From: Burkholderia savannae
Lineage (GTDB): Bacteria; Pseudomonadota; Gammaproteobacteria; Burkholderiales; Burkholderiaceae
DNA length: 64,000 nt
Assembly: GCF_001524445.2 (NCBI RefSeq)
Contig: NZ_CP013417.1
Span: forward strand, 2,232,001-2,296,000
Direction of reading: 5' to 3'
A program made the translations under genes and the position numbers. A model generated the notes under the pieces. The model was given only the letters and a program-made list of their open reading frames with translations. It was not told the origin of the DNA and searched no databases. Below, piece after piece: positions 5,125 through 60,958 of this stretch. Every line of letters begins with the position of its first letter. Within the stretch, counting starts at the first letter, position 1.

Positions 5125-6495
5125 TCAACGCGCGATCGTGAACGCGTTGACCGCGCTGGCCTTCTCGTAGAAACGGCCGCCTTCGTAGCGCTCCGCGATC
5201 ACGGTCCAGTAGTAGTCGCCCGGCTTCAGGTTCGATACGACGATGCGCCCGCCCTGCGCGTCGACCTGGTCGACGATCGGGTTGCTCAGGTCCTTCGATC
5301 CCGACAGCACGAAGCGAAAGCGCGTCGGGCCGGCGGCCGGGCCGCCTTCCGTCGTCGACCAGCGGAACGCGTAGCCGCCGTCGGCGGGCGCCGCCGACAC
5401 ATCGACGCCGAAGCGCCGCCGCTCGAACGCGTAGATGCGCGGCTGGCCTTCGAGGCCGTGCGAATCGATCGCCGAGATCCGGACGAAATAGGTGCCGTCC
5501 GGCACGTCCGCGAAAGCGGCGTGCGGCGTGTTCGCGCGCACTTCCTTGAAGAGATCGTACAGGCCCGCGTCGCGCGCGATCTGCACATGGTAGTTCTGCG
5601 CGCCGTCGAGCGGCACGAGATCGAACGCCACCTGCGGGTCGTCCTGGACCTTCGCCGGATTGACGAGCTGCGGCGCGCCGAGCAGCTCGATCGGGCTGCC
5701 GACGACGCCGCTCGCGCTCGTCACGTTGCCGAAGTTCGCGTGGACGAGCGTGTCGGTCGCGCGCTTCGCGCTCGGCGCGACGCCGACCGTGCCGTCGAGC
5801 ACTTCGACCGTCGTCGACGCGCGGCCGTCCTTGTCGTAATTCACGCGAAAGCGGGTGCCGCGCACGCCGGCGACGACCGACGGCGAGCGGATCTGGAAGC
5901 GGTCGTCCTTCTTCTTCAGATGGGTGACTTCGCTGTCGACCGAGCCGCGCCGCAGATCGATCACGCGCTCGAGCGTGCCCGTCAGCACCGTGCGGCGCAG
6001 CGTCGCGAGGTCGATCTGGCTGTCGGGCGGCAGGCTCAGGTGGGTGCCGTCCGTGAGCTCGAGCGTGACGAATGCGTTCGCGCCCGTGCGCAGGCGATCG
6101 CCTTCCGTCAGCGTCGTGTCGACGGCGACGGGCGAGAACTGCGTCGAGCCGCGCCCCGCGCTCTCGACCGGCCCGTGCGCGGCGATCACGCGCGCCGACA
6201 GCCGCTCCTTGCGCAGCCGCGCTGCGGGCAGCTTCAACGCGATGCCCGGTTGCAGGTGCTTCGGCACCGGCACGTCGTTCAGTTGCGCGACGAGCGGCCA
6301 GTCGTCCGAGCCCTGCAGATAGCGGGCCGCGACGTCGTACAGCGTGTCGCCGTTGCGCGTCGTGTAGTCGACGGTCTGCCCGGACGGATTCTTCGTCTTC
6401 GACGGCTGCGCGGCGGCGTGCTGCGCCGCGAGAGCCGCTGCCGCGGCGCAGCACGCCGTCAGCACGTACTTCGTCACGATCCCGCTGGCACTCAC
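5125..6495 (-). CDS. exported LysM and FecR domain protein
   Basis: A 456-residue predicted periplasmic protein. After a signal peptide (about residues 7-30, ending AQHAAAQ) there is a LysM peptidoglycan-binding domain (about 41-90: VDYTTRNGDTLYDVAARYL ... LQPGIALKLP). A FecR-like domain follows (about 128-222: LTEGDRLRTGANAFVTLELT ... VVAGVRGTRFRVNYD), then two fibronectin-like repeats that end in the ISAID and ERYEGGRFYEKASAVNAF segments. The start is GTG at 6495, whose bases overlap the stop of the response-regulator gene as GTGA, with GGGGG upstream; a second GTG at 6477 would give a more compact signal peptide. FecR domains normally relay signals to sigma factors, but none is encoded here. 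The partners are a response regulator and a CHASE2 kinase. Confidence 0.9.
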   Translation of the reverse strand: MSASGIVTKYVLTACCAAAAALAAQHAAAQPSKTKNPSGQTVDYTTRNGDTLYDVAARYLQGSDDWPLVAQLNDVPVPKHLQPGIALKLPAARLRKERLSARVIAAHGPVESAGRGSTQFSPVAVDTTLTEGDRLRTGANAFVTLELTDGTHLSLPPDSQIDLATLRRTVLTGTLERVIDLRRGSVDSEVTHLKKKDDRFQIRSPSVVAGVRGTRFRVNYDKDGRASTTVEVLDGTVGVAPSAKRATDTLVHANFGNVTSASGVVGSPIELLGAPQLVNPAKVQDDPQVAFDLVPLDGAQNYHVQIARDAGLYDLFKEVRANTPHAAFADVPDGTYFVRISAIDSHGLEGQPRIYAFERRRFGVDVSAAPADGGYAFRWSTTEGGPAAGPTRFRFVLSGSKDLSNPIVDQVDAQGGRIVVSNLKPGDYYWTVIAERYEGGRFYEKASAVNAFTIAR

Positions 6496-7907: not shown

Positions 7908-8238
7908 GACCTCCCCCTGTTTGCCGCAACGACACGCACGGGGCATGTCCTTCGCGATGCGTCCCGGCCGCGGCCGCCGTACGCACGGCACGATTCCGCA
8001 GACGAGACTCGACAGCGCAGTATAGGCACCGCGCGGCGAAACTTGGTTTAAGGATTGTTAGACGGATGCGCCGCCCGAGGCCCGCCGGCGGCCGCCAGCC
8101 GCGCTCGCTCGGCCGGCGCGCGACGACATGCGACGACATGCGACGACGTGCGACGACGTGCGACGAAGCGCGAAGAAAAATGCCGCGCCGGGCACGCCCG
8201 CGCGGCATCGGAACGACATGGCGTCGCGGCCGCGCGCG
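7908..8238. other. intergenic region with a 10-bp tandem repeat
   Basis: No gene is seen in these 331 bases. The notable content is the short tandem array at 8121-8170; the remainder is ordinary GC-rich spacer upstream of the hypothetical gene and downstream of the tusA-like gene. Confidence 0.55.
8121..8170. repeat. 10-bp tandem repeat, four full copies plus a partial one
   Basis: Two copies of CGACGACATG are followed by two copies of CGACGACGTG and a degenerate fifth unit (CGACGAAGCG). It lies between the TusA-like and hypothetical genes, outside coding sequence. Such arrays vary in copy number between strains in this group, so it is a candidate VNTR. Confidence 0.85.
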
Positions 8239-8469
8239 TCAGCGGCGGCGCATCAGGAAAACGAACGTCTTGTCCTGCGTCGTCGACGATTCGACGATCT
8301 CGTTGCCCGTCTGTTTCGCGAACGCGGCGAAGTCGCGCTGCGAGCCGGGATCGGTGGCGAGCACCTTCAGAATCTGGCCGCTTTCCATATCGGCGAGCGC
8401 TTTCTTCGCGCGCAGGATCGGCAGCGGGCAATTGAGCCCGCGCGCGTCCACTTCCTTGTGAATGAGCAT
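8239..8469 (-). CDS. TusA/SirA-family sulfur-carrier-like protein
   Basis: A 76-residue cytoplasmic protein of the TusA (SirA/YedF) family, small domains that carry a persulfide on a conserved Cys for tRNA thiolation or other sulfur transfer. The family signature is intact: VDARGLNCPLPILRAKKAL, with active Cys14 in the Cys-Pro-x-Pro motif. Length and the C-terminal beta strand (DKTFVFLMRRR) are typical. No sulfur-relay partner is adjacent, so whether it is TusA proper or a paralogue cannot be told here. Confidence 0.88.
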   Translation of the reverse strand: MLIHKEVDARGLNCPLPILRAKKALADMESGQILKVLATDPGSQRDFAAFAKQTGNEIVESSTTQDKTFVFLMRRR

Positions 8470-8612
8470 CGGCTTTCGACCTTCGAATGGCGCGCCGTCG
8501 CGGCGCTGTCGGAACGACAGATTCTACCGCATGCGCCCCCGTCCGCATCCGCGCGCGAGCGAACGAGCGAACGACTATGCGCGCGGCGCACGGCGGCGGC
8601 GCGCGCGCCGGG

Positions 8613-49643: not shown

Positions 49644-50837
49644 ATGATCATCAAACCGCGCGTACGCGGCTTCATCTGCGTCACCACCCATCCGGCCGGC
49701 TGTGCGGCGAGCGTGCGCGAGCAGATCGCCTACGTCGAGCGCGGCGGCCCGATCGGGCACGGGCCGAAGAAGGTGCTCGTGATCGGCGCGTCGACGGGCT
49801 ACGGGCTCGCCGCGCGCATCGCGGCCGCGTTCGGATCGGCGGCCGCCACGCTCGGCGTGTTCTTCGAGCGCGCGCCGGGCGACGCGAAGCCCGGCACCGC
49901 AGGCTGGTACAACAGCGCCGCCTTCCATGAAGAAGCGGCCGCGCGCGGCCTGTATGCGGCGAGCATCAACGGCGACGCGTTCTCCGACGAGATCAAGCAA
50001 AAGACGATCGACGCGATCAGGCGCGATCTCGGCCAGGTCGACCTGGTCGTCTACAGCGTCGCCGCGCCGCGCAGGACGCATCCGAAGACGGGCGAGACGT
50101 TCCAGTCGACGCTCAAGCCGATCGGCCGCGCGGTGCGGCTGCGCGGGATCGATACGGACAACGAGGCGATCAAGGAAACGCTGCTTCAGCCGGCGACGCC
50201 CGACGAGATCGCCGGCACGGTCGCCGTGATGGGCGGCGAGGACTGGCGGATGTGGATCGACGCGCTCGACGCGGCGGGCGTGCTCGCCGACGGCGCGAAG
50301 ACGACCGCGTTCACGTATCTCGGCGAGAAGGTCACGCACGACATCTACTGGAACGGCTCGATCGGCGAGGCGAAGAAGGACCTCGACCGCACCGTGCTCG
50401 CGATCCGCGACAAGCTCGCCTCGCGCGGCGGCGACGCGCGCGTGTCGGTGCTGAAGGCCGTCGTCACGCAGGCGAGCTCCGCGATTCCGATGATGCCGCT
50501 GTACCTGTCGCTGCTCTTCAAGGTGATGAAGGCGCGCGGCACGCACGAAGGCTGCATCGAGCAGGTCGACGGCCTGTTCCGCGACAGTCTCTACGGCGCG
50601 CATCCGCATGTCGACGCCGAAGGCCGGCTGCGCGCCGACGGGCGCGAGCTCGATCCCGCCGTGCAGGCGCGCGTGCTCGAGCTGTGGGACCAGGTGACGG
50701 ACGACAATCTGTACACGCTCGCCGATTTCGCCGGCTACAAGACCGAATTCCTGCGTCTGTTCGGCTTCGAGATCGACGGCGTCGATTACGACGCGCACGT
50801 CGACCCGAACGTGCGGATGGCGAATCTGATCGACTGA
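49644..50837 (+). CDS. fabV: trans-2-enoyl-ACP/CoA reductase FabV
   Basis: NADH-dependent reductase of the last step in fatty acid elongation. The 397-residue protein shows [21 protein letters not shown] (dinucleotide fold) and the FabV catalytic pair Tyr235-x8-Lys244 in [11 protein letters not shown], identical in numbering to the characterised Burkholderia mallei FabV. Segments [18 protein letters not shown] at the start and [20 protein letters not shown] near the end are family-typical. FabV enzymes are refractory to triclosan, a known trait of this class. It is a single-gene unit. Confidence 0.96.
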
Positions 50838-50933: not shown

Positions 50934-51566
50934 TCACACGAGCCCGTTCTCCGACGCGTACATGAACAGATCGACGTCGGACTTCAGCCCGAGCTTGCCC
51001 ATCGCATTGTGCTTGTGCGTGCTGACCGTCTTGATGCTGCGGCCATAGCGGTGCGCGATGTCGGTCATCGTCATGCCGGTCGCGCAGAGGCGCACGACCT
51101 CGATCTCGCGCGGGCTCAGCTGCGGCGGCGCGTCCGTCGCGCGCATCGCGAGCCCGCTCGCCGCGCCCGCGTGCGTGCCGACGAATGTCCGCCCCTGGCA
51201 CACGGCGGCGAGCGCGCGCGGCAGCTCGTCGAGGTCGCCCCGCTTGCTCAGCACCGCGAGCGCGCCCGCCTGGCGCATCGTGCGCATCAGCACCGGGTTG
51301 TCGAGCATCGTCAGAACGATCACGCGCACCGAAGGATGGCCGTCGCGGATCGCGGTCAGCATCGCGAGGCCGTCCGCGGCCGGCTGGTCGGGCATCGCGA
51401 AATCGGTGATGACGATGTCGCACGGCGTGGCCGCGAGCCGCGCGAGCAGCCCCGCCGGATCGTGCGCCTCGCCGACGATCGACACGTCGGCCATGTCCGC
51501 CAGCATGTGACGCACGCCCAACAGCACGAGCGGATGGTCGTCCGCGATCAACACTTGAACGCTCAT
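50934..51566 (-). CDS. RcsB-like NarL/FixJ-family response regulator
   Basis: A 210-residue regulator. The receiver domain spans residues 1-120, with acidic residues DD at 9-10 in VLIADDHPLV, the phospho-acceptor Asp in IVITDFAMPDQP near 55, and SKRGDLDE bearing the conserved Lys. The LuxR-type helix-turn-helix (about 145-205: LSPREIEVVRLCATGMTMTDIAHRYGRSIKTVSTHKHNAMGKLG) closely resembles the RcsB DNA-binding domain. Its ATG immediately follows the TAA of the hybrid kinase gene, so the two are coupled, and it is the last gene of the block that follows the Csu pilus operon. It may regulate that operon. Confidence 0.93.
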   Translation of the reverse strand: MSVQVLIADDHPLVLLGVRHMLADMADVSIVGEAHDPAGLLARLAATPCDIVITDFAMPDQPAADGLAMLTAIRDGHPSVRVIVLTMLDNPVLMRTMRQAGALAVLSKRGDLDELPRALAAVCQGRTFVGTHAGAASGLAMRATDAPPQLSPREIEVVRLCATGMTMTDIAHRYGRSIKTVSTHKHNAMGKLGLKSDVDLFMYASENGLV

Positions 51567-53642
51567 TTACCTTCCTCCTTTTGGATCGCCGCGATCGCGC
51601 GATTGCGCCGGATGCGCAACGCAGCGCAGCAGATGGTTCACCATCGCGAGCGTGTCCCGGACCGCGCCGCGGATCGCGCGGGCGTCGCCCGCCGCGAGCA
51701 GATGGTGGAATTCGTCGAGCAGCGCATCGACGTGCGCCTGGCCGAACAGGCCGTACGTGCCGCGCGCCGTGTGGCACCACGCGCGCAGCTCGCGCTCGGA
51801 CAGGCCGTCGCGCAAATGGCGCGTCAGCGCATCCCGGTCGCGCTCGAGCGCGCGGCGGCACGCAAGCAGGATCGCGTCGCGCGCCGCGCCGTGCGCGGAC
51901 GACGCGCCGAATCCCGCGAGCAGGCGCGTCGCGTCGATGCGCGACGGATCGAAGCGCAGCGCGGGCGCGGGCTCGATCGCATCGACGAGCGCGCGCTCGA
52001 GCGCGTCGAGCGTCGTCGGCTTGCCGATGCACAACGTCATGCCGGCCGCGACGCAGCGCGCGTATTCGGCGTCCGACACGAGCGCCGTCACGCCGACGAC
52101 GGGCGTCGCGCGCACGCGCGCATCCGGATGCGCGCGGATCGCCGCCGTCAGCGCGACGCCGTCCATGCCCGGCATCCGGCAGTCGGTGAGCACGACGTCG
52201 AACGCGCCCGCCTCGAGCGCGCGCAACGCTTCTTCGCCGCCGCCGCAGAGGCGCGCGCGATGGCCGAGCGCGTCGAGCTGGTAGCCGATCACGACGCGGT
52301 TCATTTCCTGATCGTCGACGACGAGCACGCGGTACGCGCGCGGCTCGCTTCCCGTCGCCGCGCGTGCGCACGCCGCATCCCGCGCGTCGAGCGCGGCGCG
52401 CAGGCTCTCGGTGAACGCGCGCCAGCCGAGCGGGTTGCTGCTCAGCCGCACGTGCGTGCCGTCGTCGAGCCAGCCGGCGGGCTGCGCCGCGTCGGTCACG
52501 CCGACCCAGCCGATCTGCGGCCGCGCCGCGTCGACGCGCGCCTCGTCGCACACCACCGCGTCGACGTCCGTCGCGCCGCGCGCGGCGAGCCGCACGCCCG
52601 CGGCGCGCGCGTAGGCGGCGAGCGTCGCCGCGGCCGCCGGATCGCCGACGTCGATCGACACCACGCGCCCGGCGAGCGCATCCGGCGCGTAGCCGCGCGC
52701 CGCGACCGCGCAGCGGATGCGCGCCGTCGCCGTCGTTCCCCTGCCTTCCTCGCTTGACAGCGTCACGTCTCCTCCCAGCAATCTCGCGAGCTTGCGCGCG
52801 ATCGCAAGCCCGAGCCCCGTTCCCGATTCCGTGCGCCGCGCGCCGCGCGCCGCGCGCACGAACGGCGTGAAGAGCCGCCGCAGCTCGTCGGCGGCGATGC
52901 CGATTCCCGTATCGACGATCGTCGCGACGATCTCGACCGAGCCGTCGGCCTCGTGCGCCGCGCGCACGCGCACCGACACGCTGCCGCGCTCCGTGTACTT
53001 GATGCCGTTGCCGATCAGGTTGACGAGAATCTGCCGCAGCCGATTGCCGTCCGTCAGCACGGCGGCCGGCACGTCAGCGTCGACGTATAGCCTGATTCGC
53101 AAGCCTTTGCGCTGCGCCTGCACCGCGAGCATCGCGGTCACGCTGTCGACGAGCTCGCGCACGTCCACGCGCGTCTTCTCGATCGCGAACTGCCCCGCCT
53201 CGATGCTCGCGTGATCGAGAATGTCGTTCAGCACGCGCGCGAGCGACTGCCCCGAGTCCTGCACGAGACTCAGCAGCCGTTGCTGCTCCGGCGCGAGCAG
53301 CCCCTTCTTCAGCAGCTCGACGAGCGCGAGCATGCCGTTGACGGGCGCGCGCAGCTCGTGGCTCGCGGTCGCGAGCGAGCCCCGGCTCGCGCGCAGCGCC
53401 GCCTGCAGGCGCTTCAGATCGCGGTGCGCCCATCCGTAGCTCAGCAGCGCGACGAGCACGTGGCTGCCTCCCCAAAGCAACGGGTACAGATGCGTCCACT
53501 TGCAGGGCGTCGCCGCGATCAGCATGCTGTCCTGCACCCGCGCGGAAGCCTGCGGCAGCGTCAAGAACGCGAGCGCTGCTGCGGAGATGCACACCAGTAT
53601 GCGTCGACAGAATTTGCCTCCGCAAAAGCCGTCGCTTTTCAT
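51567..53642 (-). CDS. hybrid sensor histidine kinase with receiver and Hpt domains (BvgS/EvgS-like)
   Basis: A 691-residue inner-membrane hybrid kinase. A signal or anchor segment (about 13-33) and a second hydrophobic segment (about 53-70) enclose only a short periplasmic loop, so a classical sensor domain is missing. The kinase core follows, with His95 in ATASHELRAPVNG, N-box NLIGNGIKYTERG and G-boxes DTGIGI, GTGLGL. A receiver domain starts near residue 438 (VLVVDDQEMN; TDCRMPGMDG), and an Hpt domain near the C terminus has the His in ELRAWCHTARGTYGLFG. The phosphorelay would pass to the adjacent RcsB-like regulator. It lies 414 bases downstream of the pilus operon. Confidence 0.92.
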   Translation of the reverse strand: MKSDGFCGGKFCRRILVCISAAALAFLTLPQASARVQDSMLIAATPCKWTHLYPLLWGGSHVLVALLSYGWAHRDLKRLQAALRASRGSLATASHELRAPVNGMLALVELLKKGLLAPEQQRLLSLVQDSGQSLARVLNDILDHASIEAGQFAIEKTRVDVRELVDSVTAMLAVQAQRKGLRIRLYVDADVPAAVLTDGNRLRQILVNLIGNGIKYTERGSVSVRVRAAHEADGSVEIVATIVDTGIGIAADELRRLFTPFVRAARGARRTESGTGLGLAIARKLARLLGGDVTLSSEEGRGTTATARIRCAVAARGYAPDALAGRVVSIDVGDPAAAATLAAYARAAGVRLAARGATDVDAVVCDEARVDAARPQIGWVGVTDAAQPAGWLDDGTHVRLSSNPLGWRAFTESLRAALDARDAACARAATGSEPRAYRVLVVDDQEMNRVVIGYQLDALGHRARLCGGGEEALRALEAGAFDVVLTDCRMPGMDGVALTAAIRAHPDARVRATPVVGVTALVSDAEYARCVAAGMTLCIGKPTTLDALERALVDAIEPAPALRFDPSRIDATRLLAGFGASSAHGAARDAILLACRRALERDRDALTRHLRDGLSERELRAWCHTARGTYGLFGQAHVDALLDEFHHLLAAGDARAIRGAVRDTLAMVNHLLRCVAHPAQSRDRGDPKGGR

Positions 53643-54056
53643 ACCTTTATCCCATATGGAACCTCGTCAGAATACGCATCTCTTCCGTTTCCGGAAAAAA
53701 CTCGCACCTCCTTTTTCTTGTCGCCGTTCCATTTATGGGTAGGGTCGTTTATCCCATCGCACGTGCGCTTTCTCCGATTCCTCGATTCGATGGCGCGCAG
53801 CGCAGAGCGGCGGCGTCCGCCCGCGGCCGGCCCGGAACGAAAATGGGACGGCCGACACGCGAAAGTCGGCGATCAACGCATGCGCAGGGCGATATTCTCG
53901 CGCCCGAATTGGCCGTTTCGGGCTTCGCACATCGTCAAATCTACGCTTCGTTCGAAAACGAAAAAAACTGTTCCGGCTTTTCCGCTCACCTCCATATCCC
54001 CCCGTCCGACTCGATTCGCATGTCCGAAACGATTTTCAGAAAACGCCGATTTTCGG
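53643..54056. other. intergenic region between the csuE-like gene and the hybrid kinase
   Basis: These 414 bases hold the promoter region of the kinase-regulator pair. Features seen are TTTCCGGAAA, a small palindrome at 53688-53697, a GCCGAC/GTCGGC hairpin near 53851-53870 and the weak terminator of the pilus operon at the right end. No gene is seen. Confidence 0.5.
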
Positions 54057-54057
54057 C
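54040..54057 (-). terminator. weak candidate terminator of the pilus operon
   Basis: On the minus strand GCCGA-AAA-TCGGC is followed by GTTTTC, starting at the last base of the csuE-like stop codon. The stem is only five base pairs, so transcription could read through into the kinase gene. Confidence 0.35.
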
Positions 54058-55022
54058 TAATAGCGCACGTCGATCACCACACTGTCCGTATACGTGCCGA
54101 CGGCGGGCGTCTGCTGATCCGAGTAGATCCGCGCGGTGTACGGAAACTGCTGCGCCGATCGGCCGTCGGCCGCCGCGCCGCTGCCCGCGCGGTTCGTCGA
54201 CTGCCCCCACACCGCGCCGCCGCCCGAGCCGAAGATGTCGTACTGCAGCCGGTTCGCGCCGTTCGCCATCTGCCGGCGCCCGCTCGCGTGCGGATTCGCG
54301 CCGCTGGTGAGGCCGACCGTGTAGACCATCCCCTTCGTGCAGGTGAGCGACACGCTGCCCGTCACCGGCGCGAAGCTCGCGACCGTCGGCGCGGAACCGA
54401 AGTTCACGTCGGGCGCGACGATCACGCAATCGTTCGTCACGGTGAGCGTGACCGGCACGACGGCCGTGCCCGAGCCCCGGTCGCGGCCGAGACAGAGGCC
54501 GAGAATGCCGATCCCGCTGCAGTAGTCCCAGCTCCACGCGATCGTCAGCGTGTCGGCGTACGTGCCCGCCGCGACATTGCTGCCCTGGATCGTGCGGAAA
54601 TACAGCGGCAGCGTCTTCGCGGGGCCGCCGAAGATCCCGAGCAGGTTCAGCAACTGCCCGCTCGCCCAGTTGTAGGTCGTGCTGTAGTCGAGCTTGATCG
54701 AATAGTTCTGGTCGGCGAACGCCGCGTACGGCACCGCGTCCCCCGTCGGGCCGACGAGCTTGCCGCCGTTGGCCGACGTGATCGTCGCGTTGATCTGGTC
54801 GCCGATCACGAACAGGCCGAGCAGCGCGCCCGAGCACGACAGGCCGCTGCTCGTCGTCGACGTCGACTGCGGCTGGCTCGCGGCGACGAACGACGTGACC
54901 GTGCCGAACGACGCGGGGGCCGCGCTCACGACCGAGCACGTCGCGTGCGCGTGCATCGCCGCGAAAAGACCGAGCGCGAGCGCCGCCGCGACGCGCACGA
55001 CGAATTGGCAGAATGGCTTCAT
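54057..55022 (-). CDS. csuE: spore coat U domain tip-adhesin-like protein (CsuE type)
   Basis: A 321-residue secreted subunit of the Csu-type pilus. The signal peptide covers about the first 27 residues (ending AMHAHA). Two SCPU-like domains are visible: CSVVSAAPASFGTVTSF ... GTYADTLTIAWSWDYC (about 29-160), and NDCVIVAPDVNFGSAPTV ... GTYTDSVVIDVRY to the end. The duplicated architecture and last position in the operon match the tip adhesin CsuE of Acinetobacter. It begins 15 bases after the usher stop. The symbol is by analogy and its binding target is unknown. Confidence 0.87.
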   Translation of the reverse strand: MKPFCQFVVRVAAALALGLFAAMHAHATCSVVSAAPASFGTVTSFVAASQPQSTSTTSSGLSCSGALLGLFVIGDQINATITSANGGKLVGPTGDAVPYAAFADQNYSIKLDYSTTYNWASGQLLNLLGIFGGPAKTLPLYFRTIQGSNVAAGTYADTLTIAWSWDYCSGIGILGLCLGRDRGSGTAVVPVTLTVTNDCVIVAPDVNFGSAPTVASFAPVTGSVSLTCTKGMVYTVGLTSGANPHASGRRQMANGANRLQYDIFGSGGGAVWGQSTNRAGSGAAADGRSAQQFPYTARIYSDQQTPAVGTYTDSVVIDVRY

Positions 55023-55037
55023 CGATGAATCCTGTCG

Positions 55038-57455
55038 TTATTCGCCGCACGCGAGCGGGCCGATGCGGTTCATCCTAGCCGCGTCGACGTCGGCATCGAA
55101 CGTCGCTCGGCACGTGCGGCCGTCCGGCGTCGTCACGCGCAGATGATTGACCGCGGACAAGCCTTCGAAATAAGTCTCGCCCTGCCAGCCGACGAGCGCG
55201 GTCTGGCCGCTCTCCTCGTGCAGCACGCGCGAGCCGATGCCGATCGGCCGGCCCGCGGCGTCGACGAGCGAGATTTGCGCGGAGACGATCTTCTCGATCG
55301 GGAACGTGACGAGCGCGCCGCCGCGGTCGCGCACGGCCACGCGCTGCTCGACGACCGGCACGCGCACGTTGCTCGGCAGCTCGAGCGGATCGATTTCGTA
55401 CTTGCCCGCGTAATACGACGGCGCCCACGGCACGAGCAGATGGCCGCCGCCGTCCGTCTTGCCGACGAGCTGGTTCTCGTAGCGCACGGGCACGCCCTTG
55501 CGGCCTTGCGTGTCGATCAGCACGAACGCGTCGTCGACGCGATTCGCGGGCAGCATCGCGCCGTCCATCACGACGACCGAGCCCTGCATCTCGCCCCAGC
55601 GCGCATAGCCGCGCCCCGCGCCGTAGCCGTACGCGCCGCCCTGCACCTGGAAGTAGCGGTTGCGCCACGTCGCGTCCGCCTGCTGATAGTGCGAACCGCC
55701 CCCCGCGTACGCGAGGTTCCAGCCGAAGCCGCCGTCGCTCGGCACGCTGCGGCTGTACTGCACGCGCTCGCTGACGCTGTTGTTCTGATCGCGCGCGAGC
55801 GAGCCCGTCACGACGCCCTTGTCGCCGAGCGGCACGATCAGTTGCACTTGCGCGGCGAAGCCGTGGTCGCCGATCGTCTTGTTCACCGACGCGTAGAGCG
55901 TCGCGCGCCGCAAGATCGGACGCGTGTACGACAGGTTCGCGATCCGCGTGCGCGCGCCGTCGGCGCCGCGCACGTCGAAATAGCCGGCGCCGAGCGTGCC
56001 GCCGATCGCGCCGAGATTGAGCGCGCCCGTGGCCTGCGTGCTGCTGCGCACGAGCCGGTACGCGACGTCCGAAGGCAAGTCGTAGACCGACAGATCGCGA
56101 AACCCGTCGGTGCGCTGAATCCGTTGCAGCGCCACGCTGAAGCGCTGCGACGAATAGCTGTAGCCGAACGCGTACTGCCGGCCGGACGCGCCGGCGAGAC
56201 GGCTCTGCGTCGCCGCGACGTTGAGCACGCCGAACATGCCGACGCCGACGTCGAACCCGAGGCCGCCGAGCGCGAAGCGTTCGCCGCCCTCCGCATGGCC
56301 TTCGATCGTCAGGTAATCGGTGAGGCCGTAGCGCGCGGTGCCCGACGCCGCGAACTTGCCGTACGAGAACGAGCGGATGCCATAGTCGCGCCGCATCGCG
56401 CCGACCGACAGCGAATAGTCCGAGAGCCCCTTCTGCAGCAGCGTGTTCGCGACGTAGAACGGAATCGTCGTCGCGACCCGGCGGCCGAGCGCGTCGGTCG
56501 TCACGACGGTCGCCTCGCCCGCGCCGTTGATGAACGGCACGTTGTTCAGCGTGAACGGCCCCGGATTCACCTGCCCCGTCGTCGTCTTGCTGCCGTTGAT
56601 GAAGAGATCGACGGCGGTCGGCACCGCGGCCTGGCCCGAGAACTGCGGCAGCGGATACGTGACGATGTCGGGGCGCACCTTGAAGTCGCGCTCGATCGAC
56701 ACGCCGCCCAGACGCACCGCGCTCGACCACGACAGCGCGCCCGTAATCACGTCGCCCGCCGTGTACGTGAGCATGCGGTCCTGATCCGAGTAGCGCCAGG
56801 ACGTGTCGTAGCGCAGATAGCGGTTGCTCGCGACGCCGCCGCTGCCGCCGTAATCGCGCCGATAGACACCCGTGTTCGTCACGGTGCCCCACTTGTCGAA
56901 CAGCCGCGCTTCGGTCCATGCGGACGTGTAGCTCGTGCCGAGCGTCGGCGAATTCGCGTACACGTCGTAATTGAACAGGAGCCCGAAGCTCACGGCCGCG
57001 GGCGTGCGGTCGTACAGCCGCCGCGAGCCGACCGCCTGCTGCGGCAGCCAGTCGGGCGGCACGCTCAGCTTCAGGCGCTGCTCGCCGCTCTCGTATTCGA
57101 CTTGCACGCCGTCGAGCGTCGACAGATCGACGAGCGCGTCGGGTTCGGCGTGCGTGCGCACCGACGCCTGCGCGAGATCGCCCGCGCGCGCGTAGTAGAC
57201 GCCGTCCCGATAGCGGATCGGCACGATCCGCCCGGTCGACAGCTCGTTGACGACGAGCTCGAGGTACAACGTGCCGCGCGTCGCCGCGCCGCCCGCGGGC
57301 GGCAGCGCGCGGCCGAAGCTCTCCGCGAGCGTCATCGGCTCGTTCGCGTGCACGTCCCCCGCCGCCGCGAACGCCATTCCCACCGCCCACGCCGCCGCGC
57401 GCCGTCGCGGCAGTCTTCTCGTTCTGTGTTCGTTGTACCCGTTGTACCGCTTCAA
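55038..57455 (-). CDS. csuD: archaic chaperone-usher pilus outer-membrane usher (CsuD/FimD-like)
   Basis: An 805-residue outer-membrane usher with the FimD-type beta-barrel. Homology includes YLELVVNELSTGRIVPIRYRDGVYYARAGDL (N-terminal domain), FLINGSKTT-like VDLFINGSKTTTGQVNPGPF, and the plug and C-terminal domain ending AVNHLRVTTPDGRTCRATFD. The best start is TTG at 57455, with GGGGA six bases before it, which gives the signal peptide ending GDVHA; no suitable in-frame ATG exists nearby (the first is in GMAFAAAG). It lies 44 bases after the chaperone stop. Confidence 0.9.
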   Translation of the reverse strand: MKRYNGYNEHRTRRLPRRRAAAWAVGMAFAAAGDVHANEPMTLAESFGRALPPAGGAATRGTLYLELVVNELSTGRIVPIRYRDGVYYARAGDLAQASVRTHAEPDALVDLSTLDGVQVEYESGEQRLKLSVPPDWLPQQAVGSRRLYDRTPAAVSFGLLFNYDVYANSPTLGTSYTSAWTEARLFDKWGTVTNTGVYRRDYGGSGGVASNRYLRYDTSWRYSDQDRMLTYTAGDVITGALSWSSAVRLGGVSIERDFKVRPDIVTYPLPQFSGQAAVPTAVDLFINGSKTTTGQVNPGPFTLNNVPFINGAGEATVVTTDALGRRVATTIPFYVANTLLQKGLSDYSLSVGAMRRDYGIRSFSYGKFAASGTARYGLTDYLTIEGHAEGGERFALGGLGFDVGVGMFGVLNVAATQSRLAGASGRQYAFGYSYSSQRFSVALQRIQRTDGFRDLSVYDLPSDVAYRLVRSSTQATGALNLGAIGGTLGAGYFDVRGADGARTRIANLSYTRPILRRATLYASVNKTIGDHGFAAQVQLIVPLGDKGVVTGSLARDQNNSVSERVQYSRSVPSDGGFGWNLAYAGGGSHYQQADATWRNRYFQVQGGAYGYGAGRGYARWGEMQGSVVVMDGAMLPANRVDDAFVLIDTQGRKGVPVRYENQLVGKTDGGGHLLVPWAPSYYAGKYEIDPLELPSNVRVPVVEQRVAVRDRGGALVTFPIEKIVSAQISLVDAAGRPIGIGSRVLHEESGQTALVGWQGETYFEGLSAVNHLRVTTPDGRTCRATFDADVDAARMNRIGPLACGE

Positions 57456-57499
57456 GGCATTTCCCCGTCGCGACGTCGTCGCTTGTGTCGTGATGCGGA

Positions 57500-58339
57500 T
57501 TACCGGTTCGAAGCGGCGCCGTCCACGTCGATCGCGAGATCGGCCACGCCGTTGACGGTGGCGACCAGCTTGGAATTGGAATTGAGCTTCATGCTCTCGG
57601 GCAGCGCCCAGCGCATCTGCGCGCCGGGCAGCACGTAGCCGAGCAGGCCGCGCGCCAAATCGGCGCGCGAGCCGTTCGATTCGAACGCCGCGCGCGTGAT
57701 CCGCGCATGCACGGGGCCGCGGTTCGACACGACGAGCCAGCGCTTGCCGCCGTCGTGCACGATGCGCCACCGGAGGGCGGGCCGCCCCGCCGTCGCAGGG
57801 TCGCGACGCTCGTCCGGGTTCTCCTTCGTCCACAGGCCGTCGCCGTACACGAAGAGCGGCACCGAGTAATGCATCTGGAACTTCACGCCCAGCGCCGTCT
57901 CGTTCGCGGCGTTCCGCGCGTCGTCGTCCGGCTGCGGGATCTCGTCGATCAGCACACGGTACGCCTCCTCGGTGCCGGGCGCGGCGTCCGCGAGGCGGGT
58001 CAGCCGGATCAACTGGCGCTTGCCGGGCGGCACAGTCGCCATCGGCGGGCTGCCCGCGATGCGCTGCTGGCTCTCGTCGTAGACATCCTCGCCGTTCGCT
58101 TCGCGCCAGCCGAGCACGCGCACCTGCAGCGTCACCGGCCGGCGATCGCGGTTCTCGAGCCATAACGCCGCCGCGCGCTGATCGCTGTCGATCACGGGAT
58201 CGATCGGCCAGATCATCACGGACGTCGCCGCATGCGCGTGCGGCGCGACCAACGCCGCCGCGGCCGCCGCGCCGACGAGCGCGCGGCGCAACATGCGTGC
58301 GGCTCGCGCCGGCATGCCGGGCGATCTCGAAACTTTCAT
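57500..58339 (-). CDS. csuC: pilus periplasmic chaperone (CsuC/PapD-like)
   Basis: A 279-residue periplasmic chaperone. The signal peptide is about the first 37 residues (ending APHAHA). The immunoglobulin-like fold of PapD-type chaperones shows in TSVMIWPIDPVIDSDQRAAALWLENRDRRPVTLQVRVLGW, the QRIAGSPPMATVPPGKRQLIRLTR strand (G1-like) and EEAYRVLIDEIPQP, a chaperone signature. AGGAA precedes the ATG at 58339. It delivers subunits to the usher encoded next. The length is a little above the usual 240-250. Confidence 0.9.
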   Translation of the reverse strand: MKVSRSPGMPARAARMLRRALVGAAAAAALVAPHAHAATSVMIWPIDPVIDSDQRAAALWLENRDRRPVTLQVRVLGWREANGEDVYDESQQRIAGSPPMATVPPGKRQLIRLTRLADAAPGTEEAYRVLIDEIPQPDDDARNAANETALGVKFQMHYSVPLFVYGDGLWTKENPDERRDPATAGRPALRWRIVHDGGKRWLVVSNRGPVHARITRAAFESNGSRADLARGLLGYVLPGAQMRWALPESMKLNSNSKLVATVNGVADLAIDVDGAASNR

Positions 58340-58356
58340 CACGGATTCCTGATTGA

Positions 58357-58890
58357 TTAATAACTGAGCGTGACCTGCGCGGTGTCGGTGTACGTGCCGG
58401 CGGGCGCGCCGCCGCCCGGCAGCGTCAGCGCGCCGTAGATCGGCAGCGTGATCGTCCCGGACACGGGCAGCGACACCGCCTGCCCGATCGCGATCGCCTG
58501 CGTGTGTCCGGCGTCCGAATACAGCTGATATGCGACGCGCGCGCCGCCGCTCGCCAGATTGCGCTGCGTGTTGCCCGCGCTCGCGTTCGCGCCGCCGTCG
58601 ATCGTCATCTTCAGCGTCGAGCCGGGCGAGCATTCGATCTGCAATGCGCCGCCGCCGACCGCCGCGCTCGCCTGCCCCGTCGCGACGGCCGGATGCGCGC
58701 CGAAATCGAGCGTGCCGAAGCTCAGGCCGCTCGTCGGCCCGCCGCCCGCGACGCCGCAGCCCGCGACAATCTGCGCGCTGACCGTGAAGGCCTGGGTTCT
58801 GGGCAACAGCGTGTCGGCCCGGCCAATCGCCGGAACAACCGGCAGCAACGCGGCGCACAGCAGGAAAACCACTCGCTCAAAGGTCGACAT
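58357..58890 (-). CDS. csuB: spore coat U domain pilus subunit (CsuB-like)
   Basis: A 177-residue secreted SCPU-domain protein. The signal peptide ends near VPAIGRA (about residue 25). The domain features are FGTLDFGAHPAV, CSPGSTLKMTIDGGANAS and the terminal APAGTYTDTAQVTLSY, a C-terminal strand pattern (Gly-Thr-Tyr-x-Asp) common to this family and important for donor-strand packing. It ends 17 bases before the chaperone gene. The operon order matches Acinetobacter csuB. Confidence 0.87.
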   Translation of the reverse strand: MSTFERVVFLLCAALLPVVPAIGRADTLLPRTQAFTVSAQIVAGCGVAGGGPTSGLSFGTLDFGAHPAVATGQASAAVGGGALQIECSPGSTLKMTIDGGANASAGNTQRNLASGGARVAYQLYSDAGHTQAIAIGQAVSLPVSGTITLPIYGALTLPGGGAPAGTYTDTAQVTLSY

Positions 58891-58971
58891 GACGATCGGA
58901 ATCTGGGATCGCCTCGCGGCTTGCTCGTATGCGCGCCGCGAGGCCGGACTGAACGGAGTCGATGCGCTCGC

Positions 58972-59532
58972 TCACCAGCCGAGCGTGACGTTCAGCACAT
59001 CGACGTACGTGCCCGCGGCGAGCGCCGACGAGCTCGTCTTGTTGACGACACCGTAAAGCGGCAGCTCGAATGCGGCGCCCGGCGTCGGCACCGACACCGA
59101 TTGCGGCGTGCCCGCGACGTAGTGCTGCGAGTGGCCCGCGTCCGCATAGACTTCGTACGGCACGAAGCTCGCGCCGTTCGCGAGCGCGCGCGTGCCCGTG
59201 CCGACGGCCGCGCCCTTCGACGCGTTCTGGCCGCCGTCGATCGTCACCTGGATCGACGTGACGTCCGGCGAGCACGTGACTTGCGTCGACGTCGAGCCGC
59301 CGCCCTTCGCCGCGCTCGAGAGCTGGCCCGTGAAGCCGCTCGGCTGCGTGCCGAAGTCGAGCGTGCCGAAGTTCGTCGCGCCGACAGAACCGCCGCCCGT
59401 ATCGACCGCGCAGCCCGTCGTCAGCACGAGCTGCGAGTTGACCGTCCCCGTGAGCGGGCTGGTTTGCGCCTGCACGCCTGCGCAAACCGACACGCAGGCG
59501 ACGGCCGCCCAGACTTTCCAGTGAGCCTTCAT
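58972..59532 (-). CDS. csuA: spore coat U domain pilus subunit (CsuA-like)
   Basis: A 186-residue secreted SCPU-domain protein with a signal peptide ending CAGVQAQ (about residue 23). TTGCAVDTGGGSVGATNFGTLDFG, CSPDVTSIQVTIDGGQNAS and the terminal ALAAGTYVDVLNVTLGW show the family fold. It is most similar in pattern to the downstream 177-residue subunit. It probably serves as a minor shaft or adaptor subunit. Confidence 0.87.
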   Translation of the reverse strand: MKAHWKVWAAVACVSVCAGVQAQTSPLTGTVNSQLVLTTGCAVDTGGGSVGATNFGTLDFGTQPSGFTGQLSSAAKGGGSTSTQVTCSPDVTSIQVTIDGGQNASKGAAVGTGTRALANGASFVPYEVYADAGHSQHYVAGTPQSVSVPTPGAAFELPLYGVVNKTSSSALAAGTYVDVLNVTLGW

Positions 59533-59585
59533 CTTGTTTCCTTCTGTGTGGTGAAAAAGAACTGTTGCTGCTTACCCGCTCCGGA

Positions 59586-60131
59586 TCACCAGTCGAGCGT
59601 GATCCCGAGCAAATCCTCGTAGGCCCCGGACGGCATCGCGCGCGTCATGCCGTTGACGACGCCGAAGAGCGGCAGCGTCACGTCGTCCTGCCGCCCATCG
59701 ACGAGAAACGACTGCGGCATGAGCGGCACGTATGGCACGCTGCGCGCCGCGTCGCGGTACACGTGGTACGGAATCCGGCCGACGACGCGCCCGTGCGCGC
59801 CGCGCGTCACCAGATAGCGGGCCGACTGGTCCCCGTTGCGGCCGCTGTCGATCGAGACCAGAAAGCCGTCGACGTCCGGACTGCACACGACGCGCACCGC
59901 GCCGTTCGACGTCGCGCGGCCGTCGGCCGCCAGGTAGTCGGACCAGAGCGGTCCGTGCGCGCCGAAATCCAGCCGGCCCAAATCCGCGCTTCCGGCAACG
60001 CCCGCGACCTCGCATCCGCGACTGACCTGCAAATTCACCTGCATCGCGCCGGTCAGTTGCCCGGCCGAGACGGTCGCGAAAGCCAGCATGAATGCCGCCC
60101 CGCCCATCGTCTGCACCACACGCTTGCGCAT
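59586..60131 (-). CDS. spore coat U domain pilus subunit, first gene of the operon (CsuA/B-like position)
   Basis: A 181-residue secreted SCPU-domain protein, signal peptide about the first 24 residues (ending ATVSAGQ). SRGCEVAGVAGSADLGRLDFG, CSPDVDGFLVSIDSGRNG and the terminal SGAYEDLLGITLDW match the family. The ATG at 60131 has GGAGAG five bases upstream. As first gene it occupies the position of the major subunit CsuA/B in Acinetobacter. The frame continues upstream to 60305 without signal-peptide or family sequence. Confidence 0.85.
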   Translation of the reverse strand: MRKRVVQTMGGAAFMLAFATVSAGQLTGAMQVNLQVSRGCEVAGVAGSADLGRLDFGAHGPLWSDYLAADGRATSNGAVRVVCSPDVDGFLVSIDSGRNGDQSARYLVTRGAHGRVVGRIPYHVYRDAARSVPYVPLMPQSFLVDGRQDDVTLPLFGVVNGMTRAMPSGAYEDLLGITLDW

Positions 60132-60958
60132 TTCGCTCTCCACACGATCGCCCGTTGATTTCGTCGTTGTTTTTCGATGGCCCAATCGCCGCGCGCCGGC
60201 CGCGCGCGGCGGCCCCGTCGCCTTGCGCGCGATACATGCGCCGCCGCCCGGCACTCGGCTCGCGCCGCCATGCGTTCGGACGAGCGCGGACCAACGGCGG
60301 CGCATCGCGCGCCGCCGCCGCGGCAGGCAAGATCGGATTGGAATTCGGCCGGCTCGGTTTTAATTGGTTGAAGCCGATCCGATTGGTCTACTCGATTGCG
60401 GTTATTTCGGAACCGCGCCCCGATTCCATCGAAAATATAATTGAATGGATGATGAATGGTTAGAGTAATTGTTACCATCGGAATAATCCGAGTTTAGGTA
60501 AATTTGACAATATTTAAAGATTCATTCTGGCGCGCCAAATCTCGCATTTGAAACGCGATCGGCTCGACCGGCGCCGCGTTAGGCGCGGCACGCAAGCGTC
60601 ATCGAACGATCGGAAACGAAACAAGAGAAATTGGATTTATGCGACGGGAAATATCGAATTCCGCCGATTCGGGTTCGCATCACCAAAAGATACCGTGCGC
60701 ACGAAAGACCATCTATTTTGGCGAGACCAAAATTTTCGCCCGCCCAATCGATAGGGAAACCGAAATATTAAATCTTGACTTTCGCAGGCCGAAATTTCGC
60801 ACATCAATTCGAATCACGAATTAATTTCCGAAATTCGTATATTGAGCAATTCGAATATTCCGACATCCGGACGATCAGCGGCGCGGGCGCGACGCGTCGC
60901 GTCGCGCCGTCGAAGACAGGCCGCGCGCGCGCCGCAGCCGGCCATTTCGCCCGCCCGC
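60132..60958. other. AT-rich regulatory region upstream of the pilus operon
   Basis: No gene is supported in these 827 bases. From about 60370 to 60850 the DNA is markedly AT-richer than the rest of the window, with runs such as GAAAATATAATTGAATGG. It should contain the pilus promoter. It includes direct repeats of GAATGG 11 bases apart (60443 and 60454) and the RcsB-box-like palindrome at 60478-60491. The composition suggests silencer binding or acquired DNA. Confidence 0.6.
60478..60491. promoter_or_regulatory. RcsB-box-like palindrome upstream of the Csu operon
   Basis: TCGGAATAATCCGA has perfect TCGGA/TCCGA arms around ATAA and matches the enterobacterial RcsAB-box consensus TAAGAATATTCCTA at ten of 14 positions by eye. 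It lies about 350 bases upstream of the first subunit gene. The operon is followed by a regulator gene with an RcsB-like DNA-binding domain. Confidence 0.45.

What the first reader, a model, noticed from the sequence alone, without database searches (positions are those of the whole stretch)
50934..60491. Complete Csu-type archaic pilus operon next to an RcsB/BvgS-like phosphorelay
Three spore-coat-U subunits, chaperone, usher and a two-domain tip protein are in the same order as Acinetobacter csuA/B-A-B-C-D-E. They are followed on the same strand by a hybrid kinase with receiver and Hpt domains and an RcsB-like regulator. The gene products and order are read from the sequence, and the family parallels are established knowledge. 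That the phosphorelay controls the pilus is inference from adjacency.
Basis: partly seen in the sequence, partly recalled or inferred. Interest (0 to 1): 0.7.

Follow-up and report, generated by a model that had tools for sequence, protein, structure and literature searches.

The report
Csu pilus operon with built-in regulator
A Burkholderia gene cluster for thin sticky pili carries its own sensor-regulator pair, a pairing already shown in a close relative to switch the pili on for biofilms, and a conserved 14-letter DNA site in front of the cluster is very likely where that regulator binds.

Summary
In detail: six archaic chaperone-usher (Csu-type) pilus genes followed on the same strand by a hybrid kinase and an RcsB-type regulator, window 50934-60131 (-). 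The kinase is RcsC/BarA-like; no BvgS sensor domain was found. My additions are computed. (1) Linkage: 14 of 65 genomes of the genus hold the orthologous usher and 11 of these 14 have the regulator beside it. (2) A palindrome, TCGGAWTATTCCGA, resembling the RcsAB box, lies upstream of the pilus operon (up to 1 mismatch) in 11 of 11 testable loci with the pair and in 0 of 5 without it. The pattern was derived from 9 of the 11. The own genome (7.43 Mb) has 2 exact places, 6 in all with up to one mismatch. I propose it as the BfmR operator. (3) The other exact own-genome site lies before a dCache-GGDEF gene, and a one-mismatch site before a classical fimbrial operon. The 2025 paper names no binding site. 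System: known. Operator and regulon: predictions.

The parts
60478..60491 (-). Predicted BfmR operator, TCGGATTATTCCGA (palindrome TCGGAWTATTCCGA, RcsAB-box-like), 346 bp upstream of the csuF ATG
   Evidence: Most conserved 14-mer in the 600 bp upstream of csuF across 9 loci (0.944, median 0.579); up to 1 mismatch in 11 of 11 testable loci with the pair, 0 of 5 without; 2 exact places in 7.43 Mb
60434..60439 (-). Possible -10-like TATATT, 38 bp 3' of the palindrome; weak
   Evidence: Read by eye; no start site mapped; inference
59586..60131 (-). First spore-coat-U subunit (csuF of B. thailandensis; position of Acinetobacter csuA/B), 181 aa, start chosen by eye
   Evidence: Pfam SCPU 1.4e-21 (with a 9-codon longer reading); best PDB CsuA/B 7zl4 3e-15; start
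58972..59532 (-). Second SCPU subunit (csuA), 186 aa
   Evidence: SCPU 1.1e-26; best PDB 8cio 8.5e-17
58357..58890 (-). Third SCPU subunit (csuB), 177 aa
   Evidence: SCPU 3.2e-29; best PDB 8cio 1.2e-17
57500..58339 (-). Periplasmic chaperone (csuC), 279 aa
   Evidence: PapD_N 1.2e-13; PDB CsuC 5d6h 2.3e-35 (with the stretch 57560-58360); start
55038..57455 (-). Outer-membrane usher (csuD), about 805 aa, start uncertain (TTG)
   Evidence: Usher 1.3e-30 and PapC_C 5e-11; start
54057..55022 (-). Two-domain tip protein (csuE), 321 aa
   Evidence: Two SCPU stretches, 2.6e-51; PDB CsuE 6fjy 1.2e-22
53643..54056 (-). 414-bp csuE-kinase gap; only 57-86 bp in L018, L019, L027 and L028
   Evidence: in B. 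thailandensis this gap has no active promoter (PMC12124856)
51567..53642 (-). Hybrid histidine kinase (bfmS), 691 aa: two hydrophobic segments, HisKA (H95), HATPase, about 130-aa linker, receiver (D487), divergent Hpt-like domain (H624)
50934..51566 (-). RcsB/NarL-type response regulator (bfmR), 210 aa, D55 conserved, RcsB-like recognition helix
   Evidence: Pfam; RcsB 155 bits against cut-off 235; PDB RcsB 9.3e-39; D55 invariant in 11 of 11 aligned csu-linked regulators

Best explanation
This is the csuFABCDE-bfmSR biofilm locus. The kinase BfmS, which has no recognisable sensor domain, autophosphorylates on H95 and passes phosphate along receiver D487, Hpt H624 and BfmR D55. BfmR-phosphate binds the palindrome TCGGAWTATTCCGA upstream of csuF and activates one promoter that reads through csuFABCDE into bfmSR, so the pair amplifies itself while making adhesive archaic pili. 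Shown by others in B. thailandensis: need for BfmS, BfmR and D55, BfmSR-dependent Pcsu, no active promoter before bfmS. Computed here: gene identities, conserved linkage, the operator-like palindrome and its co-occurrence with the pair. Inferred: order of phosphotransfer, BfmR binding to the palindrome, activation position, membrane topology, signal.
For: Gene content and order. Linkage 11 of 14 in the genus; the 11 csu-linked regulators used form one branch of a 71-row regulator tree, SH-aLRT 99. Palindrome with up to 1 mismatch in 11 of 11 testable loci with the pair and 0 of 5 without, best match there at least 3 mismatches. It is rare: 6 places with up to 1 mismatch and 0 for the reversed control in 7.43 Mb. 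It is the conservation peak of the intergenic region. BfmR's recognition helix shares 12 of 18 residues with RcsB's (counted), and the palindrome matches the RcsAB consensus TaAGaatatTCcta (PMC4325325, Fig. 3 legend) at 10 of 14 in the window and 11 of 14 in the form TCGGAATATTCCGA. A similar site with its GAA essential is reported for P. aeruginosa RcsB at cupD1 (PMC3842833, section 9). Direct genetics in B. thailandensis (PMC12124856).
Against: The pattern was derived from 9 of the 11 positive loci, so only L027 and L028 and the 5 negatives are out of sample. The 11 loci are about 5 lineages and the 5 negatives about 3 (my grouping; lineage-level Fisher p 0.018). 3 of 14 csu operons in the genus lack the pair. 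Exact copies of the palindrome occur in 5 genomes without a BfmR orthologue. None of 80 named relatives' loci has the palindrome with up to 1 mismatch. The Hpt domain is below detection in the window's kinase, and a profile of 13 such domains found no Hpt in the PDB by sequence. A weak promoter-like match, no more than chance expects, places the palindrome over a -10, which would fit repression better. No sequence of B. thailandensis E264 was fetched by name, so orthology to it rests on gene order and domain positions, not on an alignment.
Confidence: 0.85

Rival explanations
1. BfmSR controls the pilus, but through another site or indirectly; the palindrome is the operator of a different factor that happens to be lost together with the pair.
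For: No binding data for BfmR were found. A second conserved block, CTTTAAATATTGTCAAAT with a few changes, lies just upstream of the palindrome in 8 of the 9 aligned loci. Exact palindromes also occur in 5 genomes where no BfmR orthologue was found, G002, G010, G022, G058 and G062.
Against: Co-occurrence 11 of 11 against 0 of 5; RcsB-like DNA-binding helix and RcsAB-like site.
Confidence: 0.12
2. The palindrome overlaps the -10 and BfmR, or another RcsB-type regulator, represses from it (overlaps in part with the rival above).
For: Scan hit TTGTCA-16-GATTAT overlapping the palindrome, but 1 found against 1.1 expected by chance in the scanned 12 kb.
Against: BfmSR is required for Pcsu activity in B. 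thailandensis (PMC12124856). A TA-rich -10-like stretch lies about 38 bp downstream of the palindrome, seen by eye.
Confidence: 0.06
3. The pair is an unlinked passenger whose adjacency is accidental.
For: 3 of 14 csu operons in the genus lack it, and one other genus has a different, OmpR-type pair there (L054).
Against: Linkage across about 5 lineages with different flanking genes and published genetics.
Confidence: 0.02
4. BfmS is a BvgS-like sensor of a small ligand.
For: Hybrid kinase with receiver and Hpt-like domain, as recalled for BvgS.
Against: No SBP_bac_3 or PAS match in the window's kinase with the limit set at E 10 (the program's filters drop most matches above about 0.1); an outside relative, L034, does have both.
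Confidence: 0.03

Closest known systems
csuFABCDE-bfmSR of Burkholderia thailandensis E264 (BTH_I2681-BTH_I2674; PMC12124856)
   Same: Gene content and order including an upstream LysR gene and an MFS gene (MFS in the window is my reading), unorthodox kinase without sensor domain, D55 regulator, domain boundaries within about six residues
Acinetobacter baumannii csuA/BABCDE
   Same: Six-gene order subunit x3, chaperone, usher, two-domain tip; chaperone and tip closest in the PDB to CsuC and CsuE, first subunit to CsuA/B
   Different: A. baumannii BfmRS (recalled: OmpR-type, not linked to csu) is not the same family as this BfmSR despite the name; not tested here
Pseudomonas aeruginosa RcsCB/PvrSR-cupD and Roc systems (PMC3842833 passages and section 9; PMC2696094 listing only)
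   Same: Kinase with Hpt + RcsB regulator beside a fimbrial operon; RcsAB-like site needed at cupD1
   Different: cupD is recalled as a non-archaic pilus; a second sensor and an EAL regulator there, none seen here. Those proteins were not aligned here
P. aeruginosa PprAB-cupE (PMC3510237, PMC6821963, PMC10104325; search listing with abstract starts only)
   Same: Two-component control of an archaic pilus
   Different: PprB and PprA were not compared here
Enterobacterial Rcs phosphorelay
   Same: RcsB-like regulator, RcsAB-like site
   Different: RcsB equivalog cut-off not met (155 of 235 bits); RcsA, RcsD and RcsF were not sought

Membership tests
Archaic (Csu/CupE-type) chaperone-usher pilus | SCPU-domain subunits | tested here: met
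   Four of four subunit and tip genes
Archaic (Csu/CupE-type) chaperone-usher pilus | Chaperone and two-domain tip of CsuC and CsuE kind | tested here: met
   PDB matches 2.3e-35 and 1.2e-22
Archaic (Csu/CupE-type) chaperone-usher pilus | Usher and gene order as in csuA/BABCDE | tested here: met
   which product each Acinetobacter gene makes is recalled
Archaic (Csu/CupE-type) chaperone-usher pilus | Thin zigzag fibre on the cell | not testable with these tools
   Needs imaging
BfmSR of B. thailandensis | Downstream of csuE, unorthodox kinase then NarL-type regulator with D55 | tested here: met
   against PMC12124856 sections 6 and 9
BfmSR of B. thailandensis | Sequence identity to BTH_I2675/BTH_I2674 | not tested
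   No locus named as that genome was fetched
BfmSR of B. thailandensis | Activates Pcsu | not testable with these tools
   Published for E264
Unorthodox (H-D-H) kinase | HisKA, HATPase and receiver domains | tested here: met
Unorthodox (H-D-H) kinase | Hpt domain | tested here: inconclusive
BvgS | Venus-flytrap and PAS sensor domains | tested here: not met
   No match reported with the limit at E 10
RcsB (NCBIfam equivalog NF008098) | Score at or above 235 bits | tested here: not met
   155 bits; resembles, is not a member
RcsAB box | Match to TaAGaatatTCcta, all five capital positions | tested here: not met
   10 of 14 in the window, four of five capitals (G for A at position 3); resembles it (consensus, compared by eye)

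The most novel reading that the evidence does not exclude
The palindrome TCGGAWTATTCCGA is the BfmR operator and marks a small regulon that joins the archaic pilus, its own regulator genes, a dCache-GGDEF diguanylate cyclase and a classical FimA fimbria. It arose when one regulator of a family that elsewhere often sits near classical fimbrial operons was captured once by an archaic pilus operon, and operator and pair are gained and lost as a unit.
Probability: 0.4. Interest if true: 0.6.

Novelty: already known. Interest (0 to 1): 0.4.

Why it matters
What else BfmR controls is stated as open in the 2025 paper (full regulon 'currently unknown'), and no binding site is given there. A named 14-bp site with two further candidate targets in this genome makes both testable with one reporter and one binding assay, and suggests a link from pilus control to c-di-GMP.

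Tried and rejected
Kinase-receiver linker as copies of a domain: lengths of 46-52, 126-141, 269 and 383 aa (11 kinases) suggested 0-3 copies, but in L027 and L028 the long linkers are low-complexity tandem repeats without significant similarity to the window's linker, so rejected.

Diguanylate cyclase as a firm second target: the site is in 3 of 5 orthologues (59-100% identity) from genomes with the pair, the three closest species only, and in 0 of 4 from genomes without. A further 21 relatives at 45-46% identity (L092-L112) showed no site, but that script did not handle genes on the minus strand, so this count is not used. Suggestive only.

Fimbrial one-mismatch site (C3:327471): the same 14-mer in G021 (L071) is not in front of a fimbrial operon among the genes called there, so this target rests on one genome.

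Site in the wider regulator family: none of 80 named relatives' loci has it with up to 1 mismatch. Usher genes lie in 41 of these 80 loci, only one archaic (L113, apparently the same contig as L029); of 24 outside-genus Burkholderiaceae places, from 22 genomes, 2 have an usher.

Hpt by sequence profile in the PDB: no hit.

Usher tree: deep forks open, state of the pair needs 2 changes; whether L024-L026 lost it or never had it is not settled.

Regulator tree: 36 of the 80 named loci were used (L114-L149).

Papers: PMC12124856 abstract, sections 6, 9, 11, 13 and found passages; PMC3842833 found passages and section 9; PMC4325325, PMC5829831 and PMC5651002 found passages; all others search listing with abstract starts only. 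'Operator not in print' rests in an open-access library; the 2014 B. pseudomallei paper cited in PMC12124856 (Tabunhan et al.) was not seen.
Full report
WHAT IS THERE. On the minus strand of the window, six pilus genes run from 60131 down to 54057: three spore-coat-U subunits, chaperone, usher, two-domain tip. They are followed by a 691-aa hybrid kinase (53642-51567) and, directly abutting it, a 210-aa regulator (51566-50934). The subunits, chaperone and tip have their closest solved relatives among CsuA/B, CsuC, CsuE and the SCPU protein 8cio. The gene order equals csuA/BABCDE. A LysR gene lies upstream and fabV downstream; an MFS-like gene and a phosphoesterase-like gene lie further out (my reading).

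ALREADY PUBLISHED. A paper on B. thailandensis E264 describes csuFABCDE, a small ORF, and bfmSR, with LysR and MFS genes in the same subregion (PMC12124856). Pcsu-gfp is at background in bfmS or bfmR mutants, bfmS, bfmR and D55A mutants form no efficient biofilm, and no promoter is active between csuE and bfmS. In L018, L019, L027 and L028 the csuE-kinase gap is only 57-86 bp against 414 bp here, which fits one operon. The words 'binding site', 'motif' and 'palindrom' do not occur in the paper's main text.

LINKAGE. In 65 genomes of the genus, own included, an usher at 63-100% identity occurs in 14; the next matches are at 36-39%. The regulator at 57% identity or more occurs in 11 of 65, the next by E-value being at 43%. 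Ten of these 11 are beside the usher. The eleventh, G057, lies on a 5.6-kb contig with tip, kinase and regulator (L029). In G025 the contig ends inside the regulator, which one search missed and one search found (50 residues at 66%). So 11 of 14 usher genomes have the regulator beside the usher, and G005, G058 and G061 have neither kinase nor regulator there. In 398 genomes of the family the usher at E up to 1e-150 was found in 15, 13 of them of the genus. The other two are G179, which has an OmpR-type pair instead (L054), and G332, with no match to either protein in the stretch held (L055). The regulator at E up to 1e-50 occurs in 32 of the 398, 22 of them outside the genus; none of these 22 genomes is among the 15 with the usher. 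The 11 csu-linked regulators used form one branch of a 71-row tree, SH-aLRT 99. Regulators of the wider family often lie near classical ushers: 41 of 80 named loci hold an usher, one of them archaic.

THE SITE. Aligning 600 bp upstream of the first subunit in 9 loci with the pair shows one peak, TCGGATTATTCCGA in the window (60491-60478), mean conservation 0.944 against a median of 0.579. With up to one mismatch to TCGGAWTATTCCGA it is present in 11 of 11 testable loci with the pair: 6 exact, 5 with one mismatch. In the 5 csu loci without the pair the best match in the upstream stretch (230-910 bp) has at least 3 mismatches. The pattern came from 9 of the 11, so L027, L028 and the 5 negatives are the out-of-sample part. 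Fisher p is 0.0002 by locus and 0.018 if loci are merged into 5 and 3 lineages, my own grouping. The window's genome holds 2 exact places and 6 in all with up to one mismatch, none for the reversed pattern. In 65 genomes there are 13 exact places in 12 genomes, 6 of them at csu. Five of the other seven are in genomes where no BfmR orthologue was found (G002, G010, G022, G058, G062), so the sequence also occurs without BfmR.

WHY BfmR. Its recognition helix reads RSIKTVSTHKHNAMGKLG against RSIKTISSQKKSAMMKLG in RcsB, 12 of 18 identical. The RcsAB consensus printed in PMC4325325 is TaAGaatatTCcta; the window's site matches 10 of 14 letters and four of the five most conserved, the form TCGGAATATTCCGA 11 of 14. 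In P. aeruginosa an RcsAB-like site was needed for RcsB-driven cupD1 expression (PMC3842833). The RcsB model cut-off is not met, so BfmR resembles RcsB without being filed as RcsB.

OTHER CANDIDATE TARGETS. The second exact own-genome site is 134 bp before a dCache-GGDEF gene; the site is kept in G021 and, with one mismatch, in G017, but not in G052 or G025, nor in 4 orthologues from genomes without the pair. A one-mismatch site is 155 bp before a FimA-FimA-PapD-usher operon, in this genome only as far as seen. The other three one-mismatch places were looked at and suggested no target. In the nearest outside relative, L034, an exact site lies 196 bp before a YadA-type adhesin gene, and a one-mismatch site 372 bp before an EAL gene. 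The theme is adhesins and c-di-GMP enzymes; it is a prediction.

VERDICT. Observation confirmed; interpretation supported and already shown in a close relative; system known. New here are a predicted operator with strong co-occurrence, and a short list of further targets.

Noticed in passing
L027:147-2645 and L028:11645-14482 (G025, G052): The kinase linker before the receiver is a long tandem low-complexity repeat (269 and 383 aa), a possible length-variable region; in L023 and L029 it is only 46-52 aa.
   Followed up: partly
L054:13029-14989 (G179): A csu operon of another genus has a divergent OmpR-type regulator and HAMP kinase next to it instead of the RcsB-type pair.
   Followed up: partly
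L030 (G000:C1:2920000-2939000): A second archaic pilus operon in the same genome, usher 38% identical, with a divergent tip-like gene; the four neighbours scanned downstream are not two-component genes.
   Followed up: partly
L041, L046, L047: Related kinase-regulator pairs in other Burkholderiaceae sit beside polyphosphate kinase genes rather than pili.
   Followed up: no
L067 and L070 (G010, G062): Exact palindromes 403-411 bp upstream of what looks like the same gene (flhB by my reading) in two genomes without a BfmR orthologue.
   Followed up: no
L027, about 7990-8508, and L028, about 5529-6258: The first subunit gene seems absent or degenerate upstream of csuA in these two loci.
   Followed up: no
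window 49644-50837 (+): fabV enoyl-ACP reductase gene lies downstream of the regulator in window, L016 and L017, but was not seen in the stretches of L018 and L019.
   Followed up: no
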